From Congeria kusceri (taxonomy: Eukaryota; Mollusca; Bivalvia; Myida; Dreissenidae): DNA of 64,000 bases. The stretch is taken from NCBI GenBank assembly GCA_027627225.1, contig CM051036.1, positions 34,615,426 to 34,679,425 of the forward strand. Reading direction: 5' to 3'. Below the pieces are notes generated by a model. The model ran no database searches. It saw nothing but the letters and a program-made list of their open reading frames with translations, and had not been told where the DNA came from. Position 1 is the first letter of the stretch, and every line of letters starts with the position of its first letter. The translations under genes and the position numbers were made by a program. Below are positions 12,486 through 51,879 of this stretch, piece after piece.

Positions 12486-14134
12486 CTTGTAAAAGGAGCG
12501 TTTATGAGGTTACGTATAAACGCATAGGCCTGTGCCACAATAGACCTTTCAGATTTTTGCCACTAAAATTTTAACTCCTCAGCCACTTTTAAATGATAAC
12601 TTTCCATTCATCGATAATCACAAATATCAAAAGCTTTACCACGTGTTTTCTTGTTTTAAATAGATTACCGGTAACCGCACAGTGCGTGACATTTAAAACA
12701 CAAAGAGTGAATAAAATACTTTTTGATTTTCTATGATTTGTGGATTCAAACGTGTACTTAATTATTTTCCAAAAAAATACAGAGATAATCCAAAACTGTA
12801 TCAGAATTTTTCACAGATGAGCGGATAATTAGTTAAATACGAATAGTCACAATGCCTCGAACACCTTATGCCCTGCTAGTGCGAGAAACAGTCGATATCT
12901 CAACTGTTTGACTCTCGCAGCTGTAACCATTTAATTGACTGGCAGTATGTCGTATTTTCACGCCAAACAGACTGCAGAATGGTCTCAGACGGTTGTCTTA
13001 TTAATTATTCACGCATGAACGAGATTTCTTTGCAGTAAGATTATCGACTGCCCTAATTCGATACTTAACATATTCAGCATTACTTGCTGTTCGTTAGTAA
13101 AATTTAATAGGTCAATACCAAGATATTCGTAATTGGTCATCTTCAACATATATCGTTATCAATTTCATAGTCTATTTCAGTCTAGTCAATACATCGTATT
13201 TACAGGAAAATATCCATACAATGTATTGCCACTCAAATTGAGTGATATGAATTTACATACAATTCAAAGGAAAATATCCATAAAATGTATTGCCACTCAA
13301 ATTGAGTGATATGAATTTACATACAATTCAAAGGAAAATATCCATACAATGTATTGCCACTCAAATTGAGTGATATGAATTTACATACAATTCAAAGGAA
13401 AATATCCATACAATGTATTGCCACTCAAATTGAGTGATATGAGACTAGTATTCAGTACAGGACTGACCATTATTGTACATAAGTACACTTAAAAAAATAT
13501 TGAAACAATAAAACTATTTCCCACCATATTCCTTGATCAGGGCTAGATTTAACTTACTTTAGATTTATATCAACCAAGTAAAATACATGTATTCAATATG
13601 TGGAAAGTTTCAAGTTCAACATTTATTAGTTAAATATCGGCAACAATTACGGAACATCATGGGAGACACATATTTATGTATTATGGAAAGGATCAGTGTT
13701 TACGATTTAGAATATTATTGTCTATGTAAATATTCTATAGTAATTTATATGAAGCTATAAAGTAACCAACCACTAGTATATAGTCGCTTAAAACTATTCA
13801 TACAAGGGATTGTAATCTTACCTCTAACACTAGCGGATCCGGGGGTGGGGGGACGGACCACACGTATATGGGCATTTATTAAATGATAAAAACTGGATAA
13901 ATATATGCTAAAAGCAACTATAGACAAAGGGTATATATACCTTTATTTGTGGATGATATTGTTTTTCTTTTATAAATTCATATATACATATGTCCGATGC
14001 AATACACCGTTGGTAGAGGATACCATATAATACAAATTATTTTCGAATGAGAATAGTCTCAATTATTACGGCGAATAAAGTGTTCCGGTCTCTTGGAAAT
14101 ACTTCCTCGTTACCTATAAAAAATACGGTTGCTA
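12486..14134. other. Intergenic DNA upstream of the CRTAC1-like gene
   Basis: AT-rich, no coding signal. It must contain the promoter of the CRTAC1-like gene just right of 12485, but no TATA box or other element stands out. It holds the 64-bp tandem array at 13204-13442. Confidence 0.4.
13204..13442. repeat. 64-bp tandem repeat, about 3.7 copies
   Basis: Units start at 13204, 13268, 13332 and 13396 with aggaaaatatccata. Copies differ at only one or two positions (for example cataaaatg for catacaatg in copy 2). Each unit contains the palindrome-like ctcaaattgag. Confidence 0.9.
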
Positions 14135-15147
14135 CTGGTTGGCAAGTAGTATCCGTGAACTAGCAGTATCCCGTGATTTGAATATTAAAAGGTGTAAAAG
14201 CTCTCCATCATTGAATGTTGAGTTTACACACATCACCTAGCAACTGTTCCAAACGCAATATAAGTTGAAGTCTCCAAAACTTCATATTTTTCAAGATATT
14301 TACATTTTTGTTAAAAAAAATCTCAAAACAACTTAACTCCTCGCGGGTCATTCACGCGCACGTCTTTGCGCATGCGCATTAATCTATAATTGGGTCCTTC
14401 TTTTTATCTTGTACTTCCCCATTTTCGGTTTACCGACGGTGATCGCTAGGTTATTCACATAAAGCAGCAATTTTAGTATTTAAACACCACCATCCATTTA
14501 TTCAACACGCATTTTTTGTGAAATAGATTTTCTTTAAAAAATCAAGAATTGCAATCGTAAAATGTTTACTCAAAGAAAATATTAACAAAGAATTGCAATT
14601 TTAAAATGTTTACTATTATTATACGGCTAGTTCCGGGACGATTTTGACAAAATTTCAATGCAGGGGAAGCGTCTAATTCGACGATAACATGGTTATCTCC
14701 CGTTTACAATCAGCTTATTTTTAAGGGACGCCAAAGGGTAATCAAAAGCCCATTTTCCGCCATCCACTTATGTTTGTAGTCGCATTATCACCGTTAATCT
14801 GGCATTGAATTTAATAATGTAACATCATTATGATGTATTTAAAATATTGTAGAATAGTATAGAGTGATTAAAATCTTGAGGCTTGTAGCACAAAAATCGC
14901 ATTTTCAATTGAAAGGAAAAATCACGGATACTTCTAGTTGTATTGCTTCAAGCAATGCTTATTGATTACCCCTTTTAAGCCCTTTATATGGTTAAAACCA
15001 TAAGACGTCATGACAAGATATTTACATCCTTGTAAACAGAAGGAGCCAAACTGTGTACTGCAACAAGCTTTTCTTTAAAAGTATTACTTACGCGATTGAA
15101 AATAAAGAAAAACTACTAAAAAACCACGGATACTACTCGCCAACCAG
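14135..15147. mobile_element. Non-autonomous TIR element flanked by TA (Tc1/mariner-like)
   Basis: The left end CTGGTTGGCAAGTAGTATCC (14135) and the right end are inverted repeats of about 24 bp, with one mismatch (CAAG versus CGAG). Both are flanked by TA (14133-14134 and 15148-15149). The 1.0-kb interior shows no transposase. TA duplication suggests the Tc1/mariner group; this is inference from the ends only. Confidence 0.7.
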
Positions 15148-15225
15148 TAACATATGCGGAACGCCTCAGATAACATTAAATACCACGTGATCGCAGATCA
15201 CGCGAGTGCCGAGAACTTTCTTTTA

Positions 15226-15696
15226 GGTCACAATATACTAAAAGATTTCCTTAACAAATTCAATGTAAAAGCAATAAATTCAACAAAAAATAAACTCAAC
15301 ATTTTGCGCGTAGAGACCCTCATAACCATACCTTTTCTTAAAGAGCATTCCGAGCCGAATTGATTTAGACAATAAAAAAGATAGGTCATGTGATATGTAA
15401 GAAAGAACTCGACGCGAATCAAAGTTCACTGTTTTACGGCCATCTTTTTACCGGATACTCTCCAGTTGAAGGTATACTGCCAACTGTCAAAGTCTCGTCA
15501 TGTAGTCTCCAACCTTCAAGCGAAACAGTGAATTTTTAGTACACAACAATGTTTTTCCTACCACACGTACAAAGAAATATTCAAAAATAAAGTCATGGCA
15601 AGTGACTATACAGAAAATTGTGTCTTCAAATAAATGGTGTTGATTTATTTAGAGAGTATAGCATTGCACACCTGAAATATTTAGTATACTGTAACC
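15226..15696 (+). repeat. Left 471-bp terminal repeat of the transposon
   Basis: Same sequence as 19020-19490 at a constant offset of 3794, with no indels and no substitutions that I could find. An internal hairpin pairs TTCACTGTTT (near 15425) with AAACAGTGAA (near 15523), plus an inner TTGAAGG/CCTTCAA pair. A short 64-codon minus-strand frame inside it occurs in both copies, but its origin is only repeat identity. Confidence 0.9.
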
Positions 15697-16414
15697 TATA
15701 AGAGAAATTTGTTCTCATTAAAATTAGTTTTTCTTGCATATAATTATCTTCCCATGCATATTGCACCAATATATTAAGTTTGGCTTGTATATCTGTCCAT
15801 TTGGCCATTTTATTTCATATTTTCAAACACAGGTGATTTTGGTCGGAAGCCGGTGATTTCAAGCGTCTTGAAGCTTAAATGTCCCTCTAACAATTAAAGC
15901 TGATATTTGCAATATTTGTGACAAAATACCCAAACAAACCAAACAAACATGTATGGGGGGCTTATGTGGGGTGAGGAGAGAATGACTTTGTTAGATATGT
16001 TTACTCTAAGCCATTTTGATAATGTATTTTTTGTGTATTTTTAAAAAAAAATCACCCCAAAAATGTAAATTTTATAGAAAAAAAATTCCAATTTCATCCA
16101 AGACAATTAACAAATTAGTCAAAATGGGAGATCAAAGATACTTTGAAGTGTAGAAATCAATCAGCTTCCAGTAATTGCTTGTTTCAAACCAATAAAGTGT
16201 AAAATCTTTAAAGCACCTTGTTTGTCGCAGCCTCTTTAATTACAGGCCACCAATTATATATTCTAGTATATAATGTCATGAGTGCCTTTAAACTGCAGCA
16301 GGTGGTCAATTTGCATTGCCTGCTCACATTTAGAGGTTTAAGGGAATACAAAATTGCATATTTTGGGCACAAAATAAGTACTTTGACTTTTTTTAAGGTG
16401 GCAATCTGGTCAAA

Positions 16415-18373
16415 ATGGGGTTCATAACCAAGCAAAAGAAAAAGTTGCTCAATGTTGGTTTTAAACGAGGTGGGACTAGTCCGGTGAAGGGGAAAAAACA
16501 TAATTATGAAAGAAGGTCAAATTCCAACACAACCTATGTAAGGTTAGAAAGGTCATCCTTTGAAGCACGGGTAGCTTACAATGACAAGGTTCTTACTTTT
16601 CGGGATGTAGACGGCTCTCAAACCCCAGCTAAGCCCTTGCGTCCGAGAGCGAACAAGATTCGCTATGTAGACCTGTTACGGGTTCCTGCTCCATCAAAAG
16701 TCCATCCCGACTTACTTACGAACAAGGTCTATGTCCCCGCCCTACTCCAGTCTATGATGTCCTCTGAAAATAGAAAGCATAGGTTAAGAAGTGATAAATG
16801 TAGGGGCGACTTGGTAATTGACGGCAGTGCTTCCATAAAGTGGGGCTTAGGCTGGGAGGAAAGGTTAAAATGTACAAGATGCAGATATGTAGGCAAGCAT
16901 TATAAGCTTTACAATGAGGTTCCATCAAGTACCAGGGCCAGAAAGGCAGCTCAGATCAATGTAGGCTTCCAAATAGGTGTTGCAAGTACTTCTATTGGGA
17001 ACACAGGTTCCCGCAGAATTCTCAACACAACCAATATCATTGCTCCCTCTCCACTTGCTATGCAAAAACAAGCAAATAAGGTCAATACTGCCCTTAAATC
17101 CCAAAATGAGAGAAGCATGTACCAGATTAGAGAAAACTTAGTTGCTGAAAATGCCAAAATTGGTCAAAAAGATCCCTCTAAGGTAAATGTTGAAGGGGAC
17201 ACTTGCTACAACAATCCAATTTTTAACTCTGACGCGACACCCTTTCAAGCCGGAACTATTGCCATAAGCACTATGTGTGAAAACAATACCAGAAACAAGC
17301 AAATTGTAGTGGTACAAGTAGCAAATAAACTATGCAGGACTGCATCAATGCTTAGGAATAAGGGTAAACCTGTTCAGTGCCCCAATCATAGGGGGCATTG
17401 TTCTGCAAATGTTTCAGAGAGGGAACCAATAGGTGATGAAGGCAAATGGAATAGGTTGTTAGGTGACCAGATCTCTAAGGACATCAAAATAGCAAATTTC
17501 ACTTGTGATGGGGACAGTAGGGCATTCCAAGGTGTTCGTAACTCTCACGGTCACAATGTGGGTCATCTTAAGGATCTGAGGCACCTAGGCAACTCGCTGA
17601 AGCGCGAGCTCAACAAAGCGCCTTTCTCAAAGGGCATGCTCAAGGGTCATTCCAAGTCTAATATCAGGAGTCGGTTCGCTCTCTCGGTCAAAGCTAGGTG
17701 TATGGCTGAGCTTAAAGCTGCCCACAATAAACACCAGGGTGACATCAAGGTTCTAAAGAAGGTCATGGTTGATGTAATCGCAACCATTGTTCTATGCTTC
17801 AGTGGTTACTGCGGTACTCATTGTGCAAAGTACAGTTATGTCTGTGCTGGTACAAATAGGCAAGCTAAGAATTTCATGCCAGACAATGTCAAGGTTAAAA
17901 TGGTTGACAGTGACCAACAAGTCCTTAAAAAATGCATTGAAATGGTTTTAGGTCCAGCTGCTCTTGACGCTACCAAACTTTTAACCACAACCCAAAAAAG
18001 TGAAGCAGTAAACAGGTCGTACCAAGCTGTCAATCCTAAAACTGTGACTTTCTCACGCAACTGTGTAGGTCGAATTCACGGGCAGGTTCACAAATTAAAC
18101 AATGGCTATGCTGACTCTGTAATTGCAAAAACCACTGAACTAAATGCTAACCTTACCCAGGGGTCAAAGATTATTAAGCAGATAGCATATGAGGACCGCA
18201 ACGACCTTAACCGAAAGCAAACATCCGCTACCAACAAAGCACGAGCTTTACGTGCCAGGACGCGGAATTATCGATACAAACTGCATGAGGAATTACACTA
18301 CGGCAAGGGCATGAGTGACCCCAAACCTGATTATGACAGTCTTCCACACCTTAAGCATCATAAATATGCTTAG
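16415..18373 (+). CDS. DDE transposase, Mutator-like type
   Basis: 652 aa, uninterrupted. The N-terminus is basic (residues 1-60). A zinc-binding-like CTRC pair is at about 153-156, followed by a conserved block (NVGFQIGV...STSIGNTG...MQKQANKV) that I associate with Mutator-like transposases of marine invertebrates. Candidate catalytic residues are Asp in VEGDTCYNNP (about 261), Asp in TCDGDSRAF (about 364) and Glu in KSEAVNRSYQ (about 529), the last followed by PKTVTFSRN. A Cys/His cluster (CFSGYCGTHCAKYSYVC, about 460-476) lies between the second Asp and the Glu. It should act in the nucleus on the element ends. The intact frame argues for recent activity. A polyadenylation-like AATAAA does not occur exactly; ataataaatt follows the stop. 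Family assignment rests on motif recall. Confidence 0.75.
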   Translation: MGFITKQKKKLLNVGFKRGGTSPVKGKKHNYERRSNSNTTYVRLERSSFEARVAYNDKVLTFRDVDGSQTPAKPLRPRANKIRYVDLLRVPAPSKVHPDLLTNKVYVPALLQSMMSSENRKHRLRSDKCRGDLVIDGSASIKWGLGWEERLKCTRCRYVGKHYKLYNEVPSSTRARKAAQINVGFQIGVASTSIGNTGSRRILNTTNIIAPSPLAMQKQANKVNTALKSQNERSMYQIRENLVAENAKIGQKDPSKVNVEGDTCYNNPIFNSDATPFQAGTIAISTMCENNTRNKQIVVVQVANKLCRTASMLRNKGKPVQCPNHRGHCSANVSEREPIGDEGKWNRLLGDQISKDIKIANFTCDGDSRAFQGVRNSHGHNVGHLKDLRHLGNSLKRELNKAPFSKGMLKGHSKSNIRSRFALSVKARCMAELKAAHNKHQGDIKVLKKVMVDVIATIVLCFSGYCGTHCAKYSYVCAGTNRQAKNFMPDNVKVKMVDSDQQVLKKCIEMVLGPAALDATKLLTTTQKSEAVNRSYQAVNPKTVTFSRNCVGRIHGQVHKLNNGYADSVIAKTTELNANLTQGSKIIKQIAYEDRNDLNRKQTSATNKARALRARTRNYRYKLHEELHYGKGMSDPKPDYDSLPHLKHHKYA

Positions 18374-18549
18374 TTGATTGTGTACCTGATAATAAATTGT
18401 TATTATTACCTGTTTTGGCATAAGAGACCTCTAACAAGTGGCCCTCGCGTCAGCATCAGGCGTTCCTCTACCTGAAAAAGGCAAAAATACCCAATAGAAA
18501 TAGATATAAAATGAAAAAAAACATGCATTTATGTATTTTAAGTGTATTT

Positions 18550-18972
18550 CTATGAATAAAAGGAAGTGATAAAGCTTGTTGTATTCATGTTTTTACCAAA
18601 TATGCAGGCTGGCTCAGTTCCATGCCCGCTGCACTGTCCGAACTGTAAACATGTCCGCCGTTCCATGTTGGTGGAATGGGGCTCTATGCTTACATGTTCA
18701 GGCTTAACACACAAGCTATTGTTGCATAAGTGGCTCACAGAGTCCCTGGCGTTCAATTCTAACTTCATGTAGCACATTAACGCTACACGGTGAACCAAGT
18801 ATGTCTCTGATTTTATGTCCGAAGGCAATTTAGCCCTCATTCGGCCATAATAGGGTAAGGAACTATTTGAAATACAACCATTCCAGATCAAACAATCTGA
18901 ATTGATGCATTTAATGCACATATTTTCTACTCTTTTGCTCAGAAATGACCAAAAATCTGCTTTCTCATCCAT
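18550..18972 (-). CDS. His-Cys-box (I-PpoI-type) homing endonuclease-like protein
   Basis: 140 aa from the Met at 18972; a Met three codons upstream (18981) is possible, but alignment to the second copy at 22895 favours 18972. Order of motifs: CLIWNGC, YYGRMRAK, VHRVAL, SHLCNNSLC, PEHVSIEP, NMERRTC, GQCSGHGTEPAC. These match the zinc-binding His-Me finger fold of I-PpoI, where the His in SHLC and a downstream Asn are catalytic. Enzymes of this type make double-strand breaks with 4-nt 3' overhangs. The gene converges on the transposase (177 bp apart). Its start is about 46 bp inside the right terminal repeat, which probably supplies its promoter. The frame is intact. Confidence 0.82.
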   Translation of the reverse strand: MDEKADFWSFLSKRVENMCIKCINSDCLIWNGCISNSSLPYYGRMRAKLPSDIKSETYLVHRVALMCYMKLELNARDSVSHLCNNSLCVKPEHVSIEPHSTNMERRTCLQFGQCSGHGTEPACIFGKNMNTTSFITSFYS

Positions 18973-19019
18973 ATTTTGCACTTGCAGACGATATTTTATT
19001 TTAACCCAAAGTCAGTTTA

Positions 19020-19490
19020 GGTCACAATATACTAAAAGATTTCCTTAACAAATTCAATGTAAAAGCAATAAATTCAACAAAAAATAAACTCAACATTTTG
19101 CGCGTAGAGACCCTCATAACCATACCTTTTCTTAAAGAGCATTCCGAGCCGAATTGATTTAGACAATAAAAAAGATAGGTCATGTGATATGTAAGAAAGA
19201 ACTCGACGCGAATCAAAGTTCACTGTTTTACGGCCATCTTTTTACCGGATACTCTCCAGTTGAAGGTATACTGCCAACTGTCAAAGTCTCGTCATGTAGT
19301 CTCCAACCTTCAAGCGAAACAGTGAATTTTTAGTACACAACAATGTTTTTCCTACCACACGTACAAAGAAATATTCAAAAATAAAGTCATGGCAAGTGAC
19401 TATACAGAAAATTGTGTCTTCAAATAAATGGTGTTGATTTATTTAGAGAGTATAGCATTGCACACCTGAAATATTTAGTATACTGTAACC
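19020..19490 (+). repeat. Right 471-bp terminal repeat of the transposon
   Basis: Direct copy of 15226-15696. Its left end (TTTA-GGTCAC) faces the start of the endonuclease gene; its right end (GTAACC-TTTA) abuts the DIRS-like sequence. Confidence 0.9.
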
Positions 19491-19563
19491 TTTATCGCCG
19501 GCCATTGACCAAGAAGGACCTCGTATTCAGACAATAAAAAAAATCATATCACACAATGTAGTT

Positions 19564-29900: not shown

Positions 29901-32900
29901 ATACATTTTATATTTGAATCTAATTATTTGCAAGATTCGATCCGAAGATCAGATCAGATCTTATTTGGATTTGGATCCGAAGATCAGATCAGATCTTATT
30001 TGGATTTGGATCCGAAGATCAGATCAGATCTTGTTTGGATTTGGATCCGAATAAAAAATTTGGATTCGTTGCATCCCTACAAACTACCCTTGGTTTTATT
30101 TTACTACCTAATACTAGCTAAACACAAGAATATATTGGATATTTTAAATAATATGCTGAAATATATATTCCAACCAGTTACTAAACTGTGGAAGCCTGTC
30201 CCTAAACTAACTACAATGGGAAATAGAGTGTGTGAGCTTTACTTTACCAGTATTTGTCTTGTGGACAGATAGTTTACCTCTTCCATAGTGTTTTCCATCA
30301 CTCCTCCTTTTCCTTTGCTTGGACCAAAAGCTATGTTGTTATAGAGAGGGTCGTTCAAAATAGGGTACCCTGTAAATAAGATTAATCAACTTTCATTAGA
30401 ACTGCACAATACATTGAGGTTTGGATAACCAAGACTGTTTTAGAAGAAATGTCTCCATTGTTAATATTTATTAAAGCTGAAAAGTTTATTGTGATAAACT
30501 AGGTATAAACCATCGTAGGAACCCACGTTCGCTCAAATGCGCTATGCTTCTTGATCAAACTGTGGGAGATTAGGCTAACAAAACTTCGTACCCATGAATA
30601 ATGAATGAGGCATTCCATTGGTTCTATGTCCATGTAAGGAAACTTTACCATTATTGTGAGCGTGGTTCATGTAAGTAGAAAATGTGCAGTGAACTGATAA
30701 GATAGAAGTTGAACACATTTGGCCAGCAGGTGGCTCATCAATATTCATGAAAACGAACTTTAGACGGCCAATTCTCCCAAGGTATATAATGTAGTGGTAA
30801 CAGAATATATACCGTGAGTTTCGACGATAAACATGCATTTATATAAGCATTAAAAGAAAATGCTGGTATAGAAAATTTTACCCAGATGATGTTAACGGTC
30901 TAACATTAACAATCAAGCCCTTAAAGTACCAATATGTTTATTACTTAAAACTATTTAGCACATAAACTGTAATGATTTAGTTATAGTCCATTACCCAAAT
31001 ACTGCAAGTGGACACGAATCTGATGCGTCCGACCAGTGTGTGGAATACCTGTAGGAAATAAACCAAAATTGGTTATTTTAAAGTCCTTAAACAGATATAG
31101 TGGCATAAATACAAATTACCAAATTAAGTTAATTAACATAGACACAAATTTCTATTTAAAATGGAATAAAAGTTAAGACCAAACTTTGCCGTAAAACACA
31201 TAAATGGCAAGTTTTTTAATTACAAAATATATAACCGCTGTATAGCAAGAAACTTCAATACAGGTATATTCGTTGACTGAACAGTTGTTCAAGTTACACA
31301 ACACTAATAAATGATGCAAAAGGCGACACTTTTAGTCGTTGATTTAGTTAGTTTTATAGTATTTCCTTGTGTATGTTTTTCTGTATGCTTTCAAGTTGTC
31401 AGTTTTTATTTGCTTATAAATTGATAAAAAGATGACAGATGCACACTTTAAAAGCTTAACACATAAATGGTGATCACATTAATACAGTTATAATGAGCAA
31501 CACACCTAGTAGTGGCTAGACATGCACTTTACATGTAAGAGTAAATGAATCAGACGCTATAATCAATTTTGTTCAAAAACAATGTTTTAAAAACTATAAT
31601 TTTATAAACTATAATACTAAACATAAGATAAACAATTTTGTTGCTGGTTAAGTACTTCAGAAGCAAAATTACCCGGTACTATGAGGTACACGAAACTAGA
31701 AGAGATAGTTACATGTATACATCTAAATAGCATTTATATTTATGGTCTCACACCCAAAATGAGACATATTTCATTAAAACAAAAAAGACATGAATTAAGC
31801 CAGATTTTCCCTTGACATGCCTAAATTTTTAAAAATGTTCTATATGACCACTGCGTACATTTAACTACACTGGAGGTGCCGTTGTAACTGAGGCGGGTGA
31901 AGGTAGTGTTGCTCCGTTTGCCCGTCGGAATGACGCCCTGCATCGACAGACGCCGGGACAGGATGTCTAGGGGCTCCGTGCACTCTACCTCGCCACTGGA
32001 AACGAGAACATACATATGTTCCACTGTTGGTATCGCACAGAAGCTTTAGCCTTAGCATTCTTGAACAAAATATTTGAAAAGTAAAAATCACAATATAGCA
32101 GTATCAAGTGTTTAGAATAGAGAATGCACAGTAGAGAAAAAGGTCTAAAACGGGTTTTGTAAAAAAAAAAGAAGTTTAGTCAACTACTATTTTGTTAAAA
32201 CTGTATATAAATAAATGGCACAACTACCATACCAACATTTGAAAACAAGCGGGCCATGATGGCCCTAGGTCGCTCACCTGAGTTTAAGGCATCATAATGG
32301 CTAATAACAAGAGGGCAAAATGGCACTAAACCCCTTACCTGAGTATAAAATCTGGGCCTTGCAGGTTCAGAAGTTTTTTTAGTCTATATAAACCATATGA
32401 CCCACAGGGCGTGGCCACTTTCTACCCCAGGGGCATAATTTGAAAAATATTTGTAGTTGACCACTATACAATGTTACATACCAAACATGAAACCACTGGG
32501 CCTTGCGATTTCAGAGAAGAACATTTTAAAGTCATTTTGCTATTTAAATGTATATAAACCATGTGGCCCCCAGGGGCGTGTCCAGTTTTGACCCCAGGGG
32601 CATTATTTGAACAATCTTTGTAGAGGACCACTATACAATGCTATATACCAAATATGAAACCTCTAGGCATTGCTGTTTCAGAGGAGAAGATTTTTAAAGT
32701 CATTTTGCTATATAAGTCTATATAAACAATGTGACCCCCGGGGCGTGGCCAGTTTTGACCCCAGGGGCATTATTTGAACAATATTTGTAGAGGACCACTA
32801 TATAATGTTATATACCAAATATGAAACCTCTAGGCCTTGCTGTTTCAGAGGAGAAGATTTTTAAAGTTATTGTGCTATACAAGTCTACATAAACCATGTG

Positions 32901-35900
32901 ACCCCCAGGGCGTGGCCAGTTTTGACCCCAGGGGCATTATTTGAACAATCTTTGTAGAGGACCACTAGAGGATGTCACATATCAAATACGAAAGCTCTGA
33001 GCTTTGCAGTTTCATAGGAGAACATTTTTAAAGTTTTTACTTTTTAAATCTATTTTTAGCTCTGGTGACCTACATATGCAGTGGACCGGAAAGATTTGAA
33101 CAACTTTGAAAAAGGTCCACCCAAGGATCATTCCTGTGAAGTTTGGTGACGGGCTTTCACAAAATGTAATCCCCAGGACTGGGAGCTAAAAACTGTATAT
33201 AAATCAATGGCATAACTAACCTGAAAATGCATGTTATAGAAAAAGGTTTAAAACAGGTTTTGTTTAAAATAAGAAGTTTAATATAATTAACTACTATTTT
33301 GTTAAAACTGTATATAAATCAATGGCATAACTAACTTACCAATATTTGAAACAAGAGCTGACAGAGGACAGCGCGCTTGACTATTCAAAGTATTTCAGTT
33401 GGCACATATTTTGGATAGTGGAAGGGGCATACATTTGTTTAAATACAAAACTTATAAGTGCCTAGTATAGTTGATACATTTTTGGAACAAAAACTTTAAC
33501 CACAATATCTATGTAAAAAGTGTGCATAACTCTGTCAAAATACAAAACAGAGTTATGGGTAATGTTGCCCCTGATACTTGAGTTGATGACAAAGGTTAGT
33601 TTAACCCATTTCATTCTGGATACACCTTTAGGTGTTTTTACCCTTGTATTCTGGATGCACCTTTAGGTGTTTTTACCCTTGTATTCTGGATACACCTTTA
33701 GGTGTTTTTACCCTTGTATTCTGGATACACCTTTCGGTGTATGACAGCATTTTTCTCTGTATGGGTATTGTTTTTGGTTCAATGTATGGCTGATATTGCG
33801 TACTAAGTACTATAAAGTTATACTTTTTTGAGAGATAATTAAATTCCTTTTATTATAAATATTGTTTAAGTCACAAATTAAAATTAATAATTTATAAACA
33901 AGTATTTATGTTTGACAAAAGAAAAGGAAATTACAATGATTTGGAAAATCATTTCTATGATAAATATATTTTATTCCCTTGCTCTCCCCAATTAACCAAA
34001 AGATACCAAATTGCATATCATTCCAATCAGCAGCTTGCGGAGCACCCTACTGTGTATACAGCTGTGGATTTATAGCCCCTGAGCATCTTTTATGGCACAT
34101 GTTATGGCCCCCTGGGTGGAAAAAGTAAGCAAGTGCTGCTGGTTGTAAAACATGGCTTTAGACAATGCATAATTAATTATCTTTGATTTATTATGTGACC
34201 TATAATGATGTTTGTTGGATTGGGTAAAAAATAAACTGTTTTGTACCAATAAATGCAAGTTTTTACCCCACAAAATGTCACATAATGAAAATTCGAAGTT
34301 TAACTGCCATTTTTATCATTCACTACACAAACCTAATTTAGCTATAATTAAATATAGCAATTCAGATTTTCCATTATTTTTGCAGCACTGCATGCAGAAT
34401 CAAATTTGCTTTAATTCATACAATGACACTACCAGCTAGATCTATCATTTATACCTGAAAAATGGCAATAATGGTTGAGCATTTCAGAAAATATTTTCAT
34501 TTAGCAAGTGCATCATCAATGTTTCATGCTTGAAATTAGTCTTTTATTTGATTTTCCACACTAAAACGTATATGAGTGCGTACAGTAATTTATATCTTTC
34601 CAAAAATATATACTTTAATTAGTCTAAAATTCATACATTATGAAAATACATTGTCTAAAATATACATATTTACATTTTTCCAAGTATACTGGAATATCTT
34701 ATAAGCGTCTGATAAGCAGTCCAGATATTCTGAGTATCTTTCCTAATGACTCTTCAGAATGAAATGGGTTAAAGTGAATAACTTATGTAGTTTTGAAGTT
34801 ACAAAACATTTGAATATGAACTTTAACCAGAAAATCTATGTGAAAAAGGGGCATAACTCTGTCAAAATACAAAACAGAGTTATTGGTAATGCTGCCCCTG
34901 ATACCAGAGTTGATAACAAGTAACAAGATACTAGAGTTGATAGAGTTCCAAGTTTCAAGTGAATAACTTATGTAGTTTTGAAGTTACCCAACTTTTCAAT
35001 ATAAACTTTAAACAGAAAATCTAAGTGAAAAGGGGGCATAACTCTGTCAAAATACAAAATAGAGTTATGGGTAATGTTGCTCCTGATACTAGAGTTGATG
35101 ACAAAGGTTAGTTCCAAGTTTCAAGTGAAAAGCTTATGTAGTATTGAAGTTACAAAACTTTTGAATATAAACTTTAACCAGAAAATCTATGTGAAAAAGG
35201 GGCATAACTCTGTCAAAATACAAAAAGAGTTATGGGGAATGTTGCAATGTTGCCCGATACTGGTGTTGATGACAAAGGTTAGTTCCAAGTTTCAGGTGAA
35301 TGCAGTTTTGAAGATAAAAGGCTTTTGGAATAAAAACTTGAACCAATTCAGACGCGGACACCGACGCGGATGCCTGGGGTAGTAGGATAGCTCACCTATT
35401 CTTCGAATAGTGGAGCTAAAAACCTATTTTAAGCCATTGCCCATATCAACTTACATACCAAGTTTGGCCTAAAGGTTGCGTGGTTATTGTCCAGATAAAC
35501 TTTTACAATTATTGGGGTTTTTAATAATCTTTTGGTCGGTTTGATCTTGATCTTTGACCCGAGGACCTCAAAATCAAAAGGGATCCTCTTCTTGTCATAC
35601 TCATAATTTCCCACCACGTTAAAAAAAATCTGGGCCTAAAGTTTGCATAGTTATTGCCCCGACAAAAGTTTCACAATCATTGGAGTTTATTTTCAATCAT
35701 AATTTGGTCAGTTTGACCTTGACCTTTACCCAATGACCTCAAAGTCTGTAGGGATTCTTCAGTAGCCATAACCAACATATCTACCAAGTTTTAAGAACCT
35801 AGGCATAAGGGTTGAAAAGTTATTGGTGGACAATGTTTTACAATAATCTGGTGGTTTTTTAACAATCTTTTGGTCTGTTTGACCTTGACCTTCGACCCAA

Positions 35901-38900
35901 TGACCCCAAAATCAATAGAGATCCTCTACTTGTCATAACCAACCTACCTACTAAGTTTGAAGAACCTAGGCCTAAGGGTTCTTTAGTAATTGCCCGGACA
36001 GATTTGGTCTACCAACAGATGGACAGACATTTGCATTTAGCAATATACCCCTGCTTCTTCGGAGGGAGGCATAATAATTCAAATTTTGAAAATGTAATTT
36101 TAATATGCTTTTATGCAGCTTTTTGCTCAATAGTAACTTAAAAGTATAGTAATGCTAATACTGTTGGCTTTATTGTCATGCAGCCAATCAAAAACATCAA
36201 TGGGGAAATTTGCGAGATCTGCAAAGGAAAAACAAATACTCCATAGCTGGGGCAATCAGGCCTTGTTTCGGCCTCCACATTACCTGCAAAAAAGCCACTT
36301 ACTCTGGGAACCTGCCGAGGACCCTGCAGACATACTCCTTGTGGAAGAGCTTCCTCTCCAACTGGGACTCCATCTTCACCGAGGTCTGCGTGTTCTTAGG
36401 AAGAATCAGCAGCCCAGAGGTGAGTCGGTCCAGCCGATACAGAACTGTGAAAGACATTCATTAATCGAAAACATGCATGATGGTTACAAAAAATGTTACA
36501 TGCTTCTGACTGTAGTGTTAGGACAGCATTTTTCAGACAGAAGGTATAACATACCACAAGGACGTTTTAATTAGGAGGTTTCTGTATGTGACAAAGGTAT
36601 AACATACCACAAGGACGTTTTAATTAGGAGGTTTCTGTATGTGACAAAGGTATAACATACCACAAGGACGTTTTAATTAGGAGGTTTCTGTATGTGACAA
36701 AGGTATAACATACCACAAGGACGTTTTAATTAGGAGGTTTCTGTATGTGACAAAACAGAGAAACAGATTGGATGATTTTTAGGTGTTTGAACTATTTTTT
36801 CAAACCCAATCGGTCTTACAGTGACACAATCCTTAAATATATACAGTCATGCATTTCCTTAAAAGTAAATATTCTTCTGGTTGTTTTCTTTACATATACA
36901 CTGATTTTCAATCCTATTTACATGCAAATAAAATGAACTTACTGCGCAGGTTTGTGTAGCCGTGTTCACGCTCCAGGATGTGCGTGAGGGAGTTGTACCG
37001 ATACCTCCCGCACGGGTGGCACGGTATGGACGGGGGCTTGTTCACCACCAGGAGGTCTGGGGTGTCTGCAATGATCTCCACTGACAGGTCTAACACTGCT
37101 CCCTCATGCCTGAGTAGTGACATATTGATTTAGGCTATAAAGTTATTTATCATTACTAAAACATTAAACCTATGCATACAATCCTGAAAACAGAAGGATC
37201 CGATCGTGATAAACAATTTTGGGAGACAGATTATGTCAATAGGTATTGGAAATGACAATGTTGTACTTTACACATGGTTATCTATAGAAGAAAAAAAGTG
37301 ACACATTGGTTTATGTGTTTGAAATAAACAATCCATCATAAAAAATCTTAAAACTTAGTACATGGAAAACACTGCATATGAAATCTATGCATAAAATCCT
37401 GAAATATTGGACACTTTATTTTATAATCGGAGGCATTGGCAATGACATACATGATACATGTATTGTAATTTTTTACACTCATGTTAATTACTAAGAAAAA
37501 ATATGCTTCAAGTATCTTTTTAATGTTCTATTCGATATCACTGACTATACTTCTACAGATAATTTTGTTAATAGGAATAGTACAGAATATTCATTACTTG
37601 TTACCATGGTTGTTGCTTAATATCTTCTACATAAACGGCTGTAATTGACTTAATTAGACTGTGTTGTTACAGCATCAGATTAAACTTTTTGCAATGTGCA
37701 CAACAAATAGTTCACAACGGCTACAGTTTAAAGCATCAGTCTAGAAATATGTTAATAAAAATAACAATTTGCAGAAATAATTTCTAATGGACATTTTACC
37801 GATAAAAATACAAACAAGGCTTGTCACAGGGTGTGATGCATGCCCCTGAAGCATATGCTTGTCAGACGAAGGCAACGCAATGTCAGTTACATTATAGCAA
37901 AAAATGATGCTTCCTACAAAAAGAGTTATGGTACTTGTATTTTGCACTCCCTCACAACATCCTCAATATACGTGGTTTTCTTTTAAATCACTTCAATACT
38001 AATGGAGTTATGCACTGCACAAGAAAATAAACTGAAGGGCAATAAATCCATAAATATTAAAGAAAGAGTTATGGTCCTTGCACTCTGCCCTTCCTCTCAA
38101 TGTCCTCTTATCAATATATGTAGTGTTATATTAAATTCCTTCAATACTAAGGAAGTAATTATCTGAAAAAAAGGACAATAACTCCGTAAATATTGAGTTA
38201 TGGTCCTTGTACTCTGCACTTCCTCGAAACTTACTCTATCAATATATGTGGTTTTATTTAAAATCCCTTCAATACTAATGAAGTTATGCTCTGCACAAAC
38301 AAATAAACAAACAACAATAAATCCATAAATATTGAAGAAAGAGTTGTGGCCATTGTGCTCTGCACATCCTCTCATTGTCCTCTATCATTATATGAAGTTT
38401 CATTCGAATCCCTTCAATACTAATGGAGTAATGCTCCGCACAAGAAACTTAAACAGCACAAGAAAATTAAACAAAGAGCAATAACTCTGTTATATTGAAG
38501 TAATCGTTTTTGTCCATTTACTCTGCAGATCCTCTCATTGTCCAGAAGTTTCATTTGAATCCCTCCAATACTAAAGGTAGTATGCTCCACACAAGAAAAT
38601 TAAAGCTTTGCACAGGAAAATAAAACAAAGTGCAATAACCCCATAAATACCGGTATTGAAGAAAGAGTTGTGTTCCTCTGCACTTCCTATCATTGCCTTC
38701 TATCATTATATGAAGTTTAATTTGAATCCCTTCCTTAGTAGTGGAGTTGTGCTTTGCACAAGAAAATAAAACAAAGGGCAATAACTCTGTAAATATTGAT
38801 TAAAGTGTTGTGGTCCTTACATTATGCACTTCCTCTCATTGTCTTCTATCACTATATGAAGTTTCATTTGAATCTCTTCAATACTAATGGAGTTATGCTC

Positions 38901-41900
38901 TGCACAAAAAAATTAAACAAAGGGCAATAACTCTGTAAATATTGAAGAAAAATAATGGTCCTTGTGCTCTGCACTTTCTCTCATTGTTCTCTATTATTAA
39001 ATGTAGTTTCATTTGAATCCCTTTAATACTTATGGAGGTATGCACCGCACAAGAAAATTAATGTTTCACATTAGGAAATAAAACAAAGGGCAATAGCTCC
39101 ATCAATATTGAAGAAAGAGTTGTGGTCCTTGTGCTCTGCACTTCCTCTAATTGTCCTCTATCATTATATAAAGTTTCATTTGAATCCCTTCAATACTAAT
39201 GGAGTTATGCTTCACAAAAGAAAATTAAACAAAGGGCAAAAACTCTGTAAATATTGAAGAAAGAGTTATGGTCCCTGTGCTCTACACTTCCTCTCCTTGT
39301 CCTCTATCATTATATGAAGTTTCATTTGAATCCCTTCAATACCTAAGGAGTTATGCTTCACAAAAGAAAATTAAACAAAGGGCAAAAACTCTGTAAATAT
39401 TGAAGAGAGTTATGGTCCCTGTGCTCTACACTTCCTCTCCTTGTCCTCTATCATTATATGAAGTTTCATTTGAATCCCTTCAATACCTATGGAGTTATGC
39501 TCGGCACACAAAAATTAATGCTTCACATAAGGAAATAAATCAAAGGGCAATAACTCTGTAAATACTTAAGACATAGTTGTGGTTCTTGTGCTCTGCACTT
39601 GGTCTTATTGTCCTCTATCATTATGTAAAGTTTCATTTGAATCCCATCAATACTAATGGAGATATGCACTGCACAAGAAAATTAAACAAACCGCAATAAC
39701 TTTGTCAATATTGAAGAAAGAGTTGTGGTCCTTGTACTCTGCACTTCTAATCATCCTCTATCATAATATGAAGTTTCATTTGAATCCCTTGAATACTAAT
39801 GGAGTTAGGCTCCGCACAAGAAGTGTGACGGACGGACGGACAGATGGACAGACGATGCGATTATTATATGCCCCCGAAGTTCTCTTCGGGAATAAAAACC
39901 GCATTGAAACTGGTAATAACGTTTTGGTAACTATTTATCATACAATTATCTGTATGCAATAGCTGGTGATGCCTCCGGAGTAAACATGTACATTAGTGTA
40001 TATTCCGTTCGTACCAAGCGTTTTCAAACCCAGACATAATAAAATGCCTTTCGTGAATAAGAAGAAGTTTTTAGTTGAATAAACGTCATTAACATTCATT
40101 CGAACTAATGCTAAGTTAAGGTGTTTTGAATTATATTCTATGGACTGCGGCTTTAACGTGTTGCTGTATCAACCCGGTATTTTAAAATGTACATTCAACG
40201 AAGACACAAAATGGAACATTTTTGCAGAAAAATGGAGGTAGTTTGAATGAATGATATACCTGTGCAGTTTGTTTTCTATCAGCTGATTGTTGGCAAGCAC
40301 AAAGTCTGGCGACACCTTCTTCCCATTGACAGTGATCAGCCCCTTCTCAATGTTACTTATCTAAACGGGATATGGGCCAGAATGGGACAGAACGATGAAC
40401 ACATACATAATCTTATGCACAATATTTTGGATTGTGTTCACTTGTAAACAAGGGTCGAACAGTTCTTTGTTATCTCAGTCAATTTGCTTCTATTCCCAAT
40501 AGATAAATCACATGATGTATATAATATATGACAGATTTTATATGTAATATATGACAGTTTTGTATCAAAAGATAATCCAGTCGTGAAAAAAACCTATAAA
40601 TATACATATTCACAGATTGGCAAACTGGCAATTTCCAAAGCTTTTGTCAACAATATAGATTTGAACTAACTAGCAACAATAATGTGACTACATATGCAAA
40701 TACATACTATAATATAAATAAATACAAAATAGAGTAACTCTAAAACTTCATCCAGTATTCAACTTACATGTTCTTCCAAACTTGTGGAAAGGTATTCAGC
40801 TTGATAGATATCTATCAACTTCCTCCCCATCCAGCGCCCTTTAACAAACGTCTTGAAGATGTACGCATATGGATAGACTTTACGCAGACCTTAAAAACAG
40901 TAACCACCAGAATATTCAGTATTCAGAAACATTATGTAGTGAAACTAACTAAGGTATTTTTTTCAAATTTTCATCCAAAGTATAATGAATTTTTGTTCAA
41001 TAGTCTCCAAAATCCCACACATAGAGAATACTAGGTTATTGTAGAATAAAGTTAAGTTTGTTCAACAAGGATTAAAAAACCTAAACCATGAGAATTGGCA
41101 AGTGATTGATGTTCTTGATGAGAATTGGCAAGTGATTGATGTTCTTGATGAGAATTGGCAAGTGATTGATGTTCTTGATGAGAATTGGCAAGTGATTGAT
41201 ATTCTTGATGAGAATTGGCAAGTGATTCATGTTCTTGATGAGAATTGGCATGTGATTGATGTTCTTGATGAGAATTGGCAAGTGATTGATGTTCTTGATG
41301 AGAATTGGCAAGTGATTCATGTTCTTGATGAGAATTGGCAAGTGATTCATGTTCTTGATGAGAATTGGCAAGTGATTCATGTTCTTGATGAGAATTGGCA
41401 AGTGATTCATGTTCTTGTGCCAAGTAAATAAGCTTATAATTATTCAACGCTTACATAGTATTTTATTTATTCGATCACTTTCTGTCTATATGTTTTGAAA
41501 ATAAACAAAAGAAGAATACTTAAGAACACAATCATAAAATGATGTCATGAAAAAAGAAAGCAAAAAAAAGATGTTATTAAGCTGAGCGTGTTTTCTTTAG
41601 CCAACAAGTTGAAATAAAGCAAGGTTTGTTCAACAGATATTTATTTGGTCAATGTATGCACAATGATATGATAAAAAGAGCATATCAAGTAGTATTTTTG
41701 TATGAAAATGATACAAAAAAAATATGTGTGAGATTTTTTTTCCAGAAAACTCTTTCCAATTAAGTTGTTAATAAAAGTTGTTGGCAGCCTTTAATGCATC
41801 ACTGAATGGCTGGTTTTTGCAAATACTATTGACTGTATGCATGTTGAATAATTAACGTATGTACAATGACATAGTTGGGAATAGTTTTTAAAGAAAACTA

Positions 41901-48253: not shown

Positions 48254-49060
48254 ATGGAAAACAACCAATCGAATCGACGAATGGATTGGGTATCAAAGGA
48301 TTTAAATTCGGCTTTTAAACGTTTCAAGAACCATGCGAATTGTATGTTTAAAGGTCCCAACGCCAATAAGACTGAGGAAGTACAATGTAATTACCTCATG
48401 ATATGGGTAGGAGACAAAGGACGCAATATTTATTCCACATGGAATTTAGCAGATGGAGCTGACAAAGTGTTAAAAACTTACTATGACAAATTCGAGGAAT
48501 ATTGTAACCAAAGGTGAACATTATTTATGAAAAATTTGTTCAAGAACCGTGTTCAGAAAGAGGAGGAACCTTTCGAACAGTTTGTCACAGAGTTGAAAAC
48601 TTTGATTAAAGACTGTGCCAATCCATGTGACCTTCATGAAGACTTGACACGCGATCACATTGTATTTGGCGTAAAATCAAGCAAAATCCGTGAAAAGCTG
48701 ATCATGGAAGGTTCAAACTTGACCCTGGGAAAAACGCTGGATATTGCGTACACGCAGGAACTGGGTCAGACACAAGCACAGGCGATTGGACAGCAACAAC
48801 CACAACCCGTGGACGCTGTACACAACAGAGGACGTGGACGCGGATTAGGGCGTCAACGCGGAACGCATCAACGAACGGAGAGGAGCGCCGGAAACGACCG
48901 ACGGACGCAGAATACATGCGGACAATGTGGCAACCACAAGCGAAGAGACATACGTGACTGTCCAGCTAGGGGACAACAATGCCACAAGTGCAATAAACTG
49001 AACCATTTTCAGAAAATGTGCAAAATCAGTGCATCAAGTGAGCGGCGACGATCGCTGTAG
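48254..49060 (+). pseudogene. Gypsy gag with two zinc knuckles, one in-frame stop
   Basis: Capsid-like region (LKTYYDKFEEYC, then MKNLFKNR and EPFEQFVTELKTLIKDC) followed by a Gln-rich/Arg-rich linker and CGQCGNHKRRDIRDC / CHKCNKLNHFQKMC knuckles. A TGA at 48515-48517 interrupts the frame without a shift. Pol must be read in another frame after 49060. Confidence 0.82.
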
Positions 49061-49149
49061 AAATGATACCAGTGCAGATGACAGTTTCTACGTAGATACG
49101 GTAAAAGGTTTTATTTCTAGACCTGACCAAATCTTCATATAAACGATAT

Positions 49150-49476
49150 AGGTTCCTAAACTAATTGCATTTCCAAAACTGATTTTCAAAAGCTTAACAG
49201 AAAGCACCCATTAGAACCAACAAATATGCACCTTACGTCGTACACAGGTGAACGATTGCGAGTTATCGGCAAAATCAGGTTAAATTGCAGCTACAAAGAT
49301 ACAGCGATAGCAACTGATTTCTTTGTTGTTGATAGGAATGCCCCACCCCTCCTTGGTCTCACAACATCGCTAGCATTAAACTTAATCAAGTTAACCTACT
49401 CAGTAGACCAATCCCACACAGGACCTGAACTTGACAAAGCGACTGTATTACGAGAATACAGTGACCTGTTCAACGG
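49150..49476 (+). pseudogene. Gypsy protease-to-RT linker fragment
   Basis: PTNMHLTSYTGERL, DFFVVDRNAPPLLGL and LREYSDLFNG blocks match the end of the aspartic protease and linker of K02A2.6-type Gypsy elements. The catalytic DTG is absent, apparently lost between 49100 and 49160. The frame is cut at the insertion at 49490. Confidence 0.7.
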
Positions 49477-49489
49477 AAAATGGTTATTT

Positions 49490-50634
49490 ATGTATTGTCC
49501 TAAGTGTAGATAAGGTCACAAGCATGGGCGTACTAGCACATCATGGCGAAGAAAGATAAGTAAGACACCTTACGAGTGAAAAAGGGCATTTATTCAAAAT
49601 GCCATACGCTGGAAATCCCCTGCCTATCGGAAATACATTCGATCGCCAATCACACCCCTGTCCGTTCCCATTTAACCCCTGGACTCTACAATGCCATTTT
49701 GGTTGCACATTTGTTAATCAGATCATTGAAAACAGAGTATAGTTCATTGTCATCTCCAGCTCGTTATCCTTTTACCTTCAAAAATTTACAATTTTGGTGA
49801 AACACTGGACTTACGGTTTAAGGCAGCAGTCTTCAGTGTACATTTAGCATGAACACTTTACTAGGTCCCTGTTCACTGGACTGACGGTTTAAGGCAGCAG
49901 TCTTTAGTGTACAATTTCAACCTATGTGTTTCTGTTGTTAATACCTTTTTATAATAAGTTTCACAGTGTTCGTTGTATATAACATGTGTATTTGCTAGGT
50001 TTATGTATATTTGTTTACATTTATTGTACTATCTGTTTTTCTGACCCATTAGGTATATAGGTTGTACATTTTATTCTCTGTGGATATCAGCTGATACCAC
50101 CTTAACATGTTTATCGTCATATTTTGTTTTACACAAATGCAGTTATGATTTCCATTTTTATGTTTTAGTTATGTATGTTGTTCCACTTTTTTCTCATGCG
50201 TATATTATCTCATTGATAATAATTGTTATGTGTGGTGTTTGCTCTTTTACCATGCAGATTTGATCTCAATTTTTATAATTGTTTTTGTATGTTTTTTACT
50301 CATTCAACCTCTCTCGGCATTTTTGGTGTTGACGTTTTAGTCAGCTGCCATCTATGTCTCCTTTGCATAATCTTGTTTTTGGTCACAGCTTGGTTTATCT
50401 GAGCGGAGTCGTTCCTCCTTGTGGCGGTTTTTAGGCTGCCCAATACAATAAAATGTAATATAATACTGAAGTACATCTTCAGTATTATATTACATTTTAT
50501 TGTATTTTGTATCAGAATTATATAACGTTTTATGGCATTTTGAATAAATGCCCTTTTTCACTCCCGTCCTAGAGATGGTGTAACTAGAACCCGTACTATA
50601 TAGTACAATGACATAAGAAAGTTTATGTAGCCAT
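49490..50634. mobile_element. 1.15-kb insertion with inverted ends and LINE-like 3' sequence
   Basis: Bracketed by AAAATGGTTATTT (49477-49489) and AAAATGTTATTT (50635-50646), a target duplication of 12-13 bp with one base difference. A 33-bp sequence at 49574-49606 (starting GAGTGAAAAAGGGC) recurs inverted at 50531-50563. Two 60-bp direct units (gacggtttaaggcagcagtc) lie near 49810 and 49870. 'tgtggcggtttttaggctgcc' followed by 'caatacaataaaatgtaat' looks like a retrotransposon 3' end. Confidence 0.6.
50442..50506. repeat. Perfect 30-bp inverted repeat (hairpin)
   Basis: Arms 50442-50471 and 50477-50506 are exact complements (AATACAATAAAATGTAATAT... to ...CTGAAG), separated by 5 nt (tacat). 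It sits at the 3' tail of the inserted segment. Confidence 0.9.
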
Positions 50635-50637
50635 AAA

Positions 50638-51879
50638 ATGTTATTTCCCGGAACATGTTCATTGCACTTACAAGAGAACGCAATCCCCGTGGTGTGCCCC
50701 CCACCCCCGATAAAATTCCCAATTGGGTTACAGGATAAATTGAAACAGGAACTTGATAGCATAGTTGAAAACCAGACCATCTGTAAAGTTACAGAACCGA
50801 CACGCTGGGCCAATTCATTAGTTTGTGTGCAAAACCCCAACGGAAACATTATAATATGTTTAGCCCCAAAGTATCTTAACGACAACATACAAAGATCTCA
50901 TTACCCAATGCGTTTCATCGACGATATAACGTCAACATTGTCAGGCGCAAAGTACTTCAGCGTACTAGATGCGACAAAAGGTTACTGGTCAATAAAATTA
51001 GACCGAGAATCATCTTATTTGGCAACATTCAACACAGTATTCGGACAGTATCGATATTTAAGGCTACCGATGGGTATTCGAAGTAGCCAGGACATTTTCC
51101 AACGGAAAATAGTCGAGACGTTCGACGGATGTCCGGGTGTGACATCAATCTGTGACGATGTGTTAGTGTTCGGAAATACGCGCGAAATTCATGACAGAAA
51201 TCTAATAAAAGCGCCAGCAAAGGCCAGAGAAGCTGGATTAGGATTTAATCCAGATAAATTACGGATATGGTTGACGTCAGTGAAATATTACAGACATGTG
51301 ATAAGTGCGGACGGACTGAAACCGGACCCTGATAAAATCACTGCTATCCTAAACACGAGAAACCCTCCTTACCGAGCAGAACTCGAAACGTTACTCGGGC
51401 TAGTTACGTACTTTACAAAATTTACCCCAAATCTAGCCGTGATAACAAGCCCCATGCGAGCTTTATTGCGCAAAGACGTATAATACCAATGGAATTCTGC
51501 GAAAGACGAAGCTTTTCACAAGGTGAAAACTGCTATTACGAAAGCTCCAGTACTCGCGTTCTATGACCCAAATAAACCAGTTAGGTTGCAAGTGGGCGCT
51601 TCCTCCAAAGGACTTGGAGTATGTTGCTTGCAAGATGGGAAACCGATTGCATACGCATCCAAGACATTAACACCCGCAGAGACGGCTTATGCTCAACTAG
51701 AAAAAGAGATGCTTGCAATACTATTCGGTTGCACTAGGTTCAAACACTGTAAACCAATTGAATAAATCATGAAGAAACCCCTGTGTAGTGCCCCGCCTAG
51801 ACTGAGTCGTTTACTGTTACATTTACAGAATTTCGACCTACAGGTTACAAATAACAAGGGAAAGAACATTCCGTTTGGA
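50638..51879 (+). pseudogene. Gypsy reverse transcriptase and RNase H, broken
   Basis: RT blocks: LDATKGYWSIKLD, ATFNTVFGQYRYLRLPMGI, SICDDVLVFGNT (catalytic DD kept), ISADGLKPDPDKI. An in-frame TAA at 51481-51483 precedes the RNase H-like part, which has QVGASSKGLG where an Asp is expected at the Gly, then IAYASKTLT and QLEKEMLAI. A deletion and TAA occur at about 51765, then MKKPLCSAPPRL and NNKGKNIPF. The reading frame then meets the inserted 462-bp element. Confidence 0.82.

What the first reader, a model, noticed from the sequence alone, without database searches (positions are those of the whole stretch)
15226..19490. Transposon with long direct repeats carrying a DDE transposase and an I-PpoI-type endonuclease
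Two 471-bp direct repeats, identical as far as I can read, flank a convergent gene pair: an intact 652-aa Mutator-like DDE transposase and an intact 140-aa His-Cys-box endonuclease. Cut-and-paste elements normally have inverted ends and one nuclease. His-Cys-box enzymes are known chiefly from mobile introns in rDNA, not as partners of a DDE transposase. Intact frames and identical repeats suggest recent movement.
Basis: partly seen in the sequence, partly recalled or inferred. Interest (0 to 1): 0.92.

Follow-up and report, generated by a model that had tools for sequence, protein, structure and literature searches.

The report
KolobokP transposon that builds tandem arrays
This is a mobile DNA element of a published kind (KolobokP), with two identical 471-base ends around genes for a predicted transposase and a predicted second DNA-cutting enzyme; its genome also holds long tandem rows of it, which likely grew by misaligned recombination, often after end repeats had dropped out.

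Summary
Window 15226-19490 is two identical 471-bp direct repeats around convergent, intact genes for a PF20700 DDE transposase (652 aa) and an I-PpoI-like nuclease (140 aa), flanked by TTTA on both sides.

The architecture was published in 2022 as KolobokP (Kojima & Bao, PMC9587614): LTDR-INT-LTDR, each LTDR with its own inverted ends, plus solo LTDRs, multimers and INT-INT joints. Dreissena is in its species table, and Dreissena polymorpha gives the closest named proteins here.

The genome adds data. 18 of 21 insertions read on both sides have identical 4-bp flanks, 17 of them TNNA. A second family has the same two-gene linkage. There are 666 LTDR-free INT-INT joints. In the 100 listed, neighbouring joints carry the same excision scar in 64 of 78 cases (shuffle mean 25.8, maximum 42). 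So LTDR loss was often followed by amplification of LTDR-free units. That argues against LTDR cutting as the only engine of array growth. What the nuclease does remains inferred.

The parts
15222..15225 (.). left copy of the target-site duplication, TTTA
   Evidence: the same 4 bp follow the right end
15226..15696 (+). left long terminal direct repeat (LTDR), 471 bp, begins GGTCACAATATACTAAA and ends TTTAGTATACTGTAACC
15697..19019 (+). internal region (INT), 3323 bp, starts TATAAGAG and ends CAGTTTA
16415..18373 (+). DDD/E transposase, 652 aa, PF20700; likely catalytic D262, D365, E530; CCHC C307/C322/H325/C329; DxxH D387-H390
   Evidence: residue roles assigned by me from the signature described in PMC9587614
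18550..18972 (-). [quoted passage not shown] S80 H81 C83 C88 H93 N102 C108 align with I-PpoI 97, 98, 100, 105, 110, 119, 125
19020..19490 (+). right LTDR, 471 bp, identical to the left one
19491..19494 (.). right copy of the target-site duplication, TTTA

Best explanation
The window holds an intact copy of a KolobokP DNA transposon, two identical 471-bp direct repeats with their own inverted ends around convergent genes for a predicted transposase and a predicted I-PpoI-like nuclease, which likely moves by its transposase and then likely multiplies in place into tandem arrays by unequal recombination. Shown here: identical 4-bp flanks, mostly TNNA, at 18 of 21 insertions read on both sides, monomers and multimers alike; LTDRs lost from between units, leaving 0-5 bp scars; the same scar repeated along runs of neighbouring joints, so that loss often came first and amplification after it; LTDR-free arrays amplified too. 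Inferred: that the transposase cuts at the LTDR ends, excising either a whole unit or one LTDR; that the first monomer-to-dimer step is an LTDR-LTDR crossover, possibly provoked by a nuclease cut; that later growth is mostly exchange within INT, which offers seven times more homology than the LTDR. The nuclease's target and role are untested.
For: Anatomy. Published kind. Outer flanks: (18 of 21 identical 4 bp, of which 17 TNNA and one TTAT; two share only TTA; one, on C343, mismatched). Multimers with one outer duplication: 8 of 9 (2 to 5 listed units). Arrays: 23 nuclease rows on the 105,110-bp contig C462; ten transposase rows 3318-3321 bp apart on C934. INT-INT joints: 666 genome-wide, control 0; neighbours share the scar in 64 of 78, 0 of 10,000 shuffles reach this. 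Array-private changes shared by units: three compared units of the four-unit C6 array share one substitution set, with 18243 G>T seen at no other sampled locus (the fourth unit has a 1-bp length difference and was not compared); C38 has five units at 3777 bp instead of 3794. Nuclease homology to I-PpoI: E 2.5e-4. Transposase model (pLDDT 80): best PDB matches ISCth4 (IS256 family) and P element.
Against: No activity was measured. No Foldseek match reaches E 1e-3. One 2-unit array (C343) has unequal flanks. Eight of the 22 arrays hold two or three scar classes (for example C4:53.6, C4:63.8, C5:83.5 and C8:14.1 Mb), so LTDRs were also lost more than once per array; nine arrays of two or more joints hold one class, and five have a single joint. 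The 100 joints are the first listed in contig order, not a random sample of the 666. Near-identical tandem repeats can be misassembled.
Confidence: 0.86

Rival explanations
1. Kojima & Bao's model as the main engine: the nuclease cuts inside the LTDR, and repair from the wrong LTDR of the sister adds one LTDR-INT unit at a time.
For: Explains the first dimer, the co-occurrence of nuclease and LTDRs, and (LTDR-INT)n arrays with 3794-bp period. I-PpoI-type residues are intact.
Against: Joints with no LTDR are amplified as well: 49 INT-only spacings among the 100 listed joints, 45 of 49 with the same scar on both sides. Such units hold no LTDR to cut. No nuclease site could be picked out in the LTDR: the best local alignments between the two families' LTDRs score 18 and 20, against 18 for the LTDR with its own reverse complement.
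Confidence: 0.3
2. Circular intermediate (translocatable unit): LTDR-INT circles, or LTDR circles carrying 4 bp of flank, reinsert at or beside an existing LTDR, as IS26 does in bacteria.
For: 72 of 100 listed scars lost 4 bp with the LTDR, the length of the target duplication, as a circle with one flank as spacer would leave. Three loci read LTDR-TTTA-LTDR, two ends abutted over 4 bp. Best fold match is an IS256-family copy-out/paste-in transposase.
Against: Copy-out should leave the donor LTDR in place, yet it is gone. Loss of 4 bp can also come from microhomology repair of TTTA/TATA. The contexts of the three abutted loci could not be fetched.
Confidence: 0.2
3. The 471-bp repeats are independent MITEs that happened to land around a transposase gene in this window.
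For: The LTDR has its own TIRs, occurs solo and can be lost alone.
Against: The same LTDR-INT-LTDR unit recurs with new outer duplications at many loci, and the inner flanks TATA and TTTA are the same in the units read.
Confidence: 0.03
4. The long arrays are assembly artefacts.
For: Many lie on small contigs (C462, C540, C593, C869, C925).
Against: Arrays also sit inside chromosome-size contigs with other sequence on both sides and matching 4-bp duplications, and carry array-private scars and length changes.
Confidence: 0.05

Closest known systems
KolobokP (Kojima & Bao 2022, Mobile DNA 13:24, PMC9587614)
   Same: LTDR about 450 bp with short TIRs, RR/YY termini, DDD/E transposase on the direct strand and I-PpoI-like nuclease downstream on the other, 3-5 bp duplications, solo LTDRs, multimers with shared LTDRs, INT-INT joints with micro-deletions. 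Seen: Abstract, Background, Results and Discussion; not Methods, figures or supplements.
   Different: The longest LTDR-free array spelled out in the text I read is LTDR-(INT)4-LTDR; here ten units in a row are listed. Scars of 0-5 bp here; the paper gives 3-4 bp at INT-INT joints as the rule and 1-5 bp in its excision cases. Target flanks here are TNNA in 17 of 18; the paper says no strong preference.
Kolobok superfamily in general
   Same: Transposase signature (DxxH, zinc fingers), RR..YY ends, 4-bp duplication.
   Different: Canonical Kolobok duplicates TTAA and has no LTDRs (per PMC9587614); here TNNA.
IS256 family / ISCth4 (structure 6xgx; PMC7780238, passages only)
   Same: Best fold match of the transposase model.
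   Different: Bacterial insertion sequence with one ORF, 8-bp duplications (passages).
I-PpoI (His-Cys box homing endonuclease, PDB 1a73/1evw)
   Same: Active-site and zinc residues of the SHLC..C..P.H..N..C stretch.
   Different: Encoded inside a transposon and not a group I intron; only 46 profile positions aligned.
IS26-type pseudo-composite transposons (as described in PMC9587614)
   Same: Direct repeats around an internal region.
   Different: In IS26 the transposase lies in the repeat (recalled); here it lies between the repeats.

Membership tests
KolobokP | two LTDRs of about 450 or 660 bp, each with short TIRs (11-18 bp) | tested here: met
   471 bp, identical; 17-nt TIR, 88% complementary
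KolobokP | termini 5'-RR and YY-3' | tested here: met
   GG...CC in this family and in the second family of the same genome
KolobokP | target duplication of 3-5 bp | tested here: met
   18 of 21 insertions with identical 4 bp, 2 more share 3 bp, 1 mismatch
KolobokP | DDD/E transposase with C/DxxH and CCHC zinc finger | tested here: met
   D262, CCHC 307-329, D365, D387xxH390, E530 invariant in 18 aligned sequences; residue roles assigned by me from the paper's description
KolobokP | I-PpoI-like nuclease downstream on the complementary strand | tested here: met
KolobokP | solo LTDRs, (LTDR-INT)n-LTDR multimers, INT-INT joints | tested here: met
KolobokP | transposase falls inside the KolobokP clade | not tested
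Kolobok superfamily | TTAA-specific duplication | tested here: not met
   TNNA; TTAA in 1 of the 18 identical pairs. The paper reports no strong target preference for KolobokP, so this does not exclude KolobokP
Mutator/MULE (MuDR) | 8-11 bp duplication (recalled) | tested here: not met
   4 bp; the Pfam model PF20700 is named Mutator but that is a label
I-PpoI homing endonuclease | catalytic H98, N119 and zinc ligands | tested here: met
   profile alignment to 1evw; the residue roles are those given in PMC9587614
I-PpoI homing endonuclease | sequence-specific cleavage and homing | not testable with these tools
   needs an assay

The most novel reading that the evidence does not exclude
KolobokP is a transposon that turns itself into a satellite: one transposition event, LTDR loss, then runaway local amplification of LTDR-free units. 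Its nuclease acts not inside the LTDR but on the junction made when right and left ends abut over 4 bp (GTAACC-TNNA-GGTCAC), a semi-palindrome that shares the pattern C-TNNA-GGT with the I-PpoI site (CTCTC-TTAA-GGTAGC), so it would open excision circles or break end-to-end copies and thereby seed arrays.
Probability: 0.12. Interest if true: 0.72.

Novelty: new member of a known kind. Interest (0 to 1): 0.36.

Why it matters
The kind is published, but its copying mechanism is open. This genome offers many near-identical copies and arrays in which each LTDR-loss scar works as a natural barcode. The barcodes show that loss often preceded amplification and that arrays grow without LTDRs, which narrows the published model (nuclease cuts in LTDRs). 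They also suggest a route from a DNA transposon to satellite-like arrays.

Tried and rejected
Rejected: independent MITEs (see rivals). Rejected as evidence: the match of the virtual abutted-end junction to the I-PpoI site. It is 8-9 of 15 letters, while the element alone holds 33 places with 9 or more among 8502 scanned on both strands, so only the C-TNNA-GGT pattern of both families is suggestive. Rejected: dN/dS among three family-2 nucleases as a test of selection; dN and dS were about equal (ratios 0.83 to 1.06), as expected for copies decaying after insertion.

Led nowhere: AlphaFold model of the nuclease (3 sequences, pLDDT 31.8, unusable); single-sequence PDB search of the nuclease (only a DNA primase, E 0.11); viral-contig scan for the transposase (9 pattern matches, none confirmed); comparison of the two families' LTDRs. 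Genome-wide counts of LTDR ends could not be had because the search tool stayed busy. Paper searches: 'KolobokP' found one paper; 'long terminal direct repeats' with 'DNA transposon' and 'homing endonuclease' the same one; the first search also listed three other papers, which I did not open; two searches listed PMC6294500 and PMC7780238, of which I saw passages only.
Full report
What is there. Window 15226-19490 holds two 471-bp direct repeats, letter for letter identical, 3323 bp apart. Between them are a 652-aa transposase ORF on the + strand and a 140-aa ORF on the - strand, convergent. Pfam gives PF20700 (E 4.1e-40) and PF05551, the zinc-binding loop of His-Me homing endonucleases (E 7.4e-10). 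Each repeat begins GGTCACAATATACTAAA and ends TTTAGTATACTGTAACC, that is, has its own inverted ends. TTTA stands on both outer sides.

It is mobile and looks young. The window lies on contig C13 of a 1.55-Gb assembly that is not named to me. A search with the repeat returned 40 full-length places at 100% and one 463-bp partial, from 394 candidates of which 40 were scored. I fetched 20 stretches around them. I compared 15 units of exactly 4265 bp from 12 loci, the window's included; units of another length (L014 and one of the C6 array) were dropped and those on L027/L028 were not put in. In each of the 15 both LTDRs are identical and both frames are open; units from different loci differ at 0-13 positions (mean 4.9, 101 pairs). 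The 150 listed nuclease places (the cap, of 5026 candidates) have open frames without stops.

Flanks. I read both outer flanks of 21 insertions. Monomers 9 of 10, solo LTDRs 1 of 2 and multimers 8 of 9 have identical 4 bp; 17 of these 18 are TNNA and one is TTAT. Two more (L017, L024) share only TTA. One 2-unit array on C343 has TGAA against TGTA. Multimers of 2, 3, 4 and 5 listed units therefore carry a single outer duplication, as the paper also reports. Arrays whose two ends were not both reached (C25, C38, C4:63.76 Mb, C4:66.94 Mb, C5:83.46 Mb, C7, C2:71.44 Mb) were left out of this count.

What it is. The architecture is that of KolobokP, published in 2022 (PMC9587614; I read Abstract, Background, Results and Discussion; Methods, figures and supplements not seen). 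[quoted passage not shown] Dreissena rostriformis and D. polymorpha are in its species table. The nearest named proteins to this window are from D. polymorpha: transposase 87%, nuclease 70%. Two locus tags there with successive numbers, DPMN_175128 and DPMN_175129, are both such transposases, which hints at tandem copies in that species too. Whether this exact family is among the 228 published ones could not be checked.

Proteins. In an alignment of 18 transposases, D262, C307, C322, H325, C329, D365, D387, H390 and E530 are invariant. Their order fits the Kolobok signature in the paper; the catalytic assignment is mine. The AlphaFold model (pLDDT 80) has as best PDB matches ISCth4 of the IS256 family (E 2.5e-3) and the P element (E 6e-3), none at or below 1e-3. 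A profile of six nucleases matches I-PpoI (E 2.5e-4), with the residues named H98, H110 and N119 in the paper conserved.

Linkage. A second family in the same genome was found with a more distant protein (66 matches, loci of the first six fetched). Its transposases are 51-54% identical to the window's and its nucleases 33-35%; nuclease and transposase occur together on opposite strands in 6 of 6 loci. It looks older: three of the six transposase matches contain a stop. In L051 the LTDRs are 473 and 471 bp, begin GGTTAC and end TTTGACC, with duplication TTGA; L052 has TTTA. So the gene pair is not an accident of one copy.

Arrays and scars. Beside monomers the genome has long arrays: 23 listed nuclease rows on the 105,110-bp contig C462, and ten transposase rows on C934 at 3318-3321 bp, about the length of INT without an LTDR. 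18 of 18 joints fetched because the spacing lacked an LTDR read as INT joined to INT. A genome-wide pattern found 666 such joints and 0 in the control. The 100 listed joints fall into 22 arrays (my cut: gaps under 40 kb) and seven scar classes with 0, 1, 2, 3, 4 (two classes) or 5 bp lost; 72 of 100 lost 4 bp. Neighbouring joints share the class in 64 of 78 cases; 10,000 shuffles gave mean 25.8 and maximum 42. Nine arrays of two or more joints hold one class, eight hold two or three, and five have a single joint. Hence an LTDR was often lost once and the joint then copied, while some arrays lost LTDRs two or three times. Among pairs with an INT-only spacing, 45 of 49 match. The list is in contig order (C1 to C8), not a random sample.

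What this says about mechanism. The published proposal is that the nuclease cuts in the LTDR and so induces unequal crossover. LTDR-free stretches have no LTDR to cut, yet they are amplified. Ordinary unequal exchange between INTs is enough for that and for array-private changes (C38 units 17 bp shorter; three compared units of the four-unit C6 array with one shared substitution set). The nuclease may still matter for the first dimer. This step is inferred.

Abutted ends. A pattern for right end, 0-20 bp, left end gave 50 places, control 0. Three have exactly TTTA between the ends; 40 have the same 14-bp spacer TCAACACACATTTA on five contigs, mostly about 4280 bp apart (a whole monomer plus spacer) or about 485 bp apart (an LTDR plus spacer), again likely local amplification of one event. 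The remaining seven have other spacers; those that begin TATA and end TTTA may be remnants of INT. The junction GTAACC-TTTA-GGTCAC shares the pattern C-TNNA-GGT with the I-PpoI site CTCTCTTAAGGTAGC (site as printed in PMC6294500, one passage). Over 15 letters the match is only 8-9, which is not special within the element. I keep this as a bold but unproven reading.

Verdict. Observation confirmed; kind already published; this family may or may not be listed there. The added value is the order of events read from the scars.

Noticed in passing
L047-L052 (G000 C8, C56, C14, C9, C10): A second, apparently older KolobokP family in the same genome with its own LTDRs, convergent nuclease and a tandem array on C14 at about 3318-bp period.
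   Followed up: partly
G000 C93, C319, C869, C882, C925: Arrays of whole monomers (about 4280 bp) and of single LTDRs (about 485 bp) that share one 14-bp spacer, TCAACACACATTTA.
   Followed up: partly
G000 C5:59119763, C19:1988554, C59:927410: Two LTDRs abutted over exactly 4 bp (TTTA), the junction an excision circle or a targeted insertion would make.
   Followed up: no
window 48527-53610: Remains of retrotransposons: reverse transcriptase frame (PF00078) at 50638-51483 (+) and an integrase-like frame (PF00665, below cut-off) at 53038-53610 (-).
   Followed up: partly
window 14130-15152: A 28-nt inverted pair, 93% complementary with 967 nt between the arms, just left of the element; may be a MITE.
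   Followed up: no
window 13204-13442, 32383-33053, 34772-39822, 41088-41417: Tandem repeats of 64, 167, about 146-185 (and longer periods) and 30 bp; a period of 166-167 bp recurs in several places.
   Followed up: no
P0029, P0033: Relatives of the transposase in Mactra antiquata carry the database name 'lens induction in camera-type eye', probably a misannotation.
   Followed up: no
G000 C5:83506882-83507815: Two LTDRs in opposite orientation directly abutted (463 and 471 bp), a palindromic arrangement.
   Followed up: no
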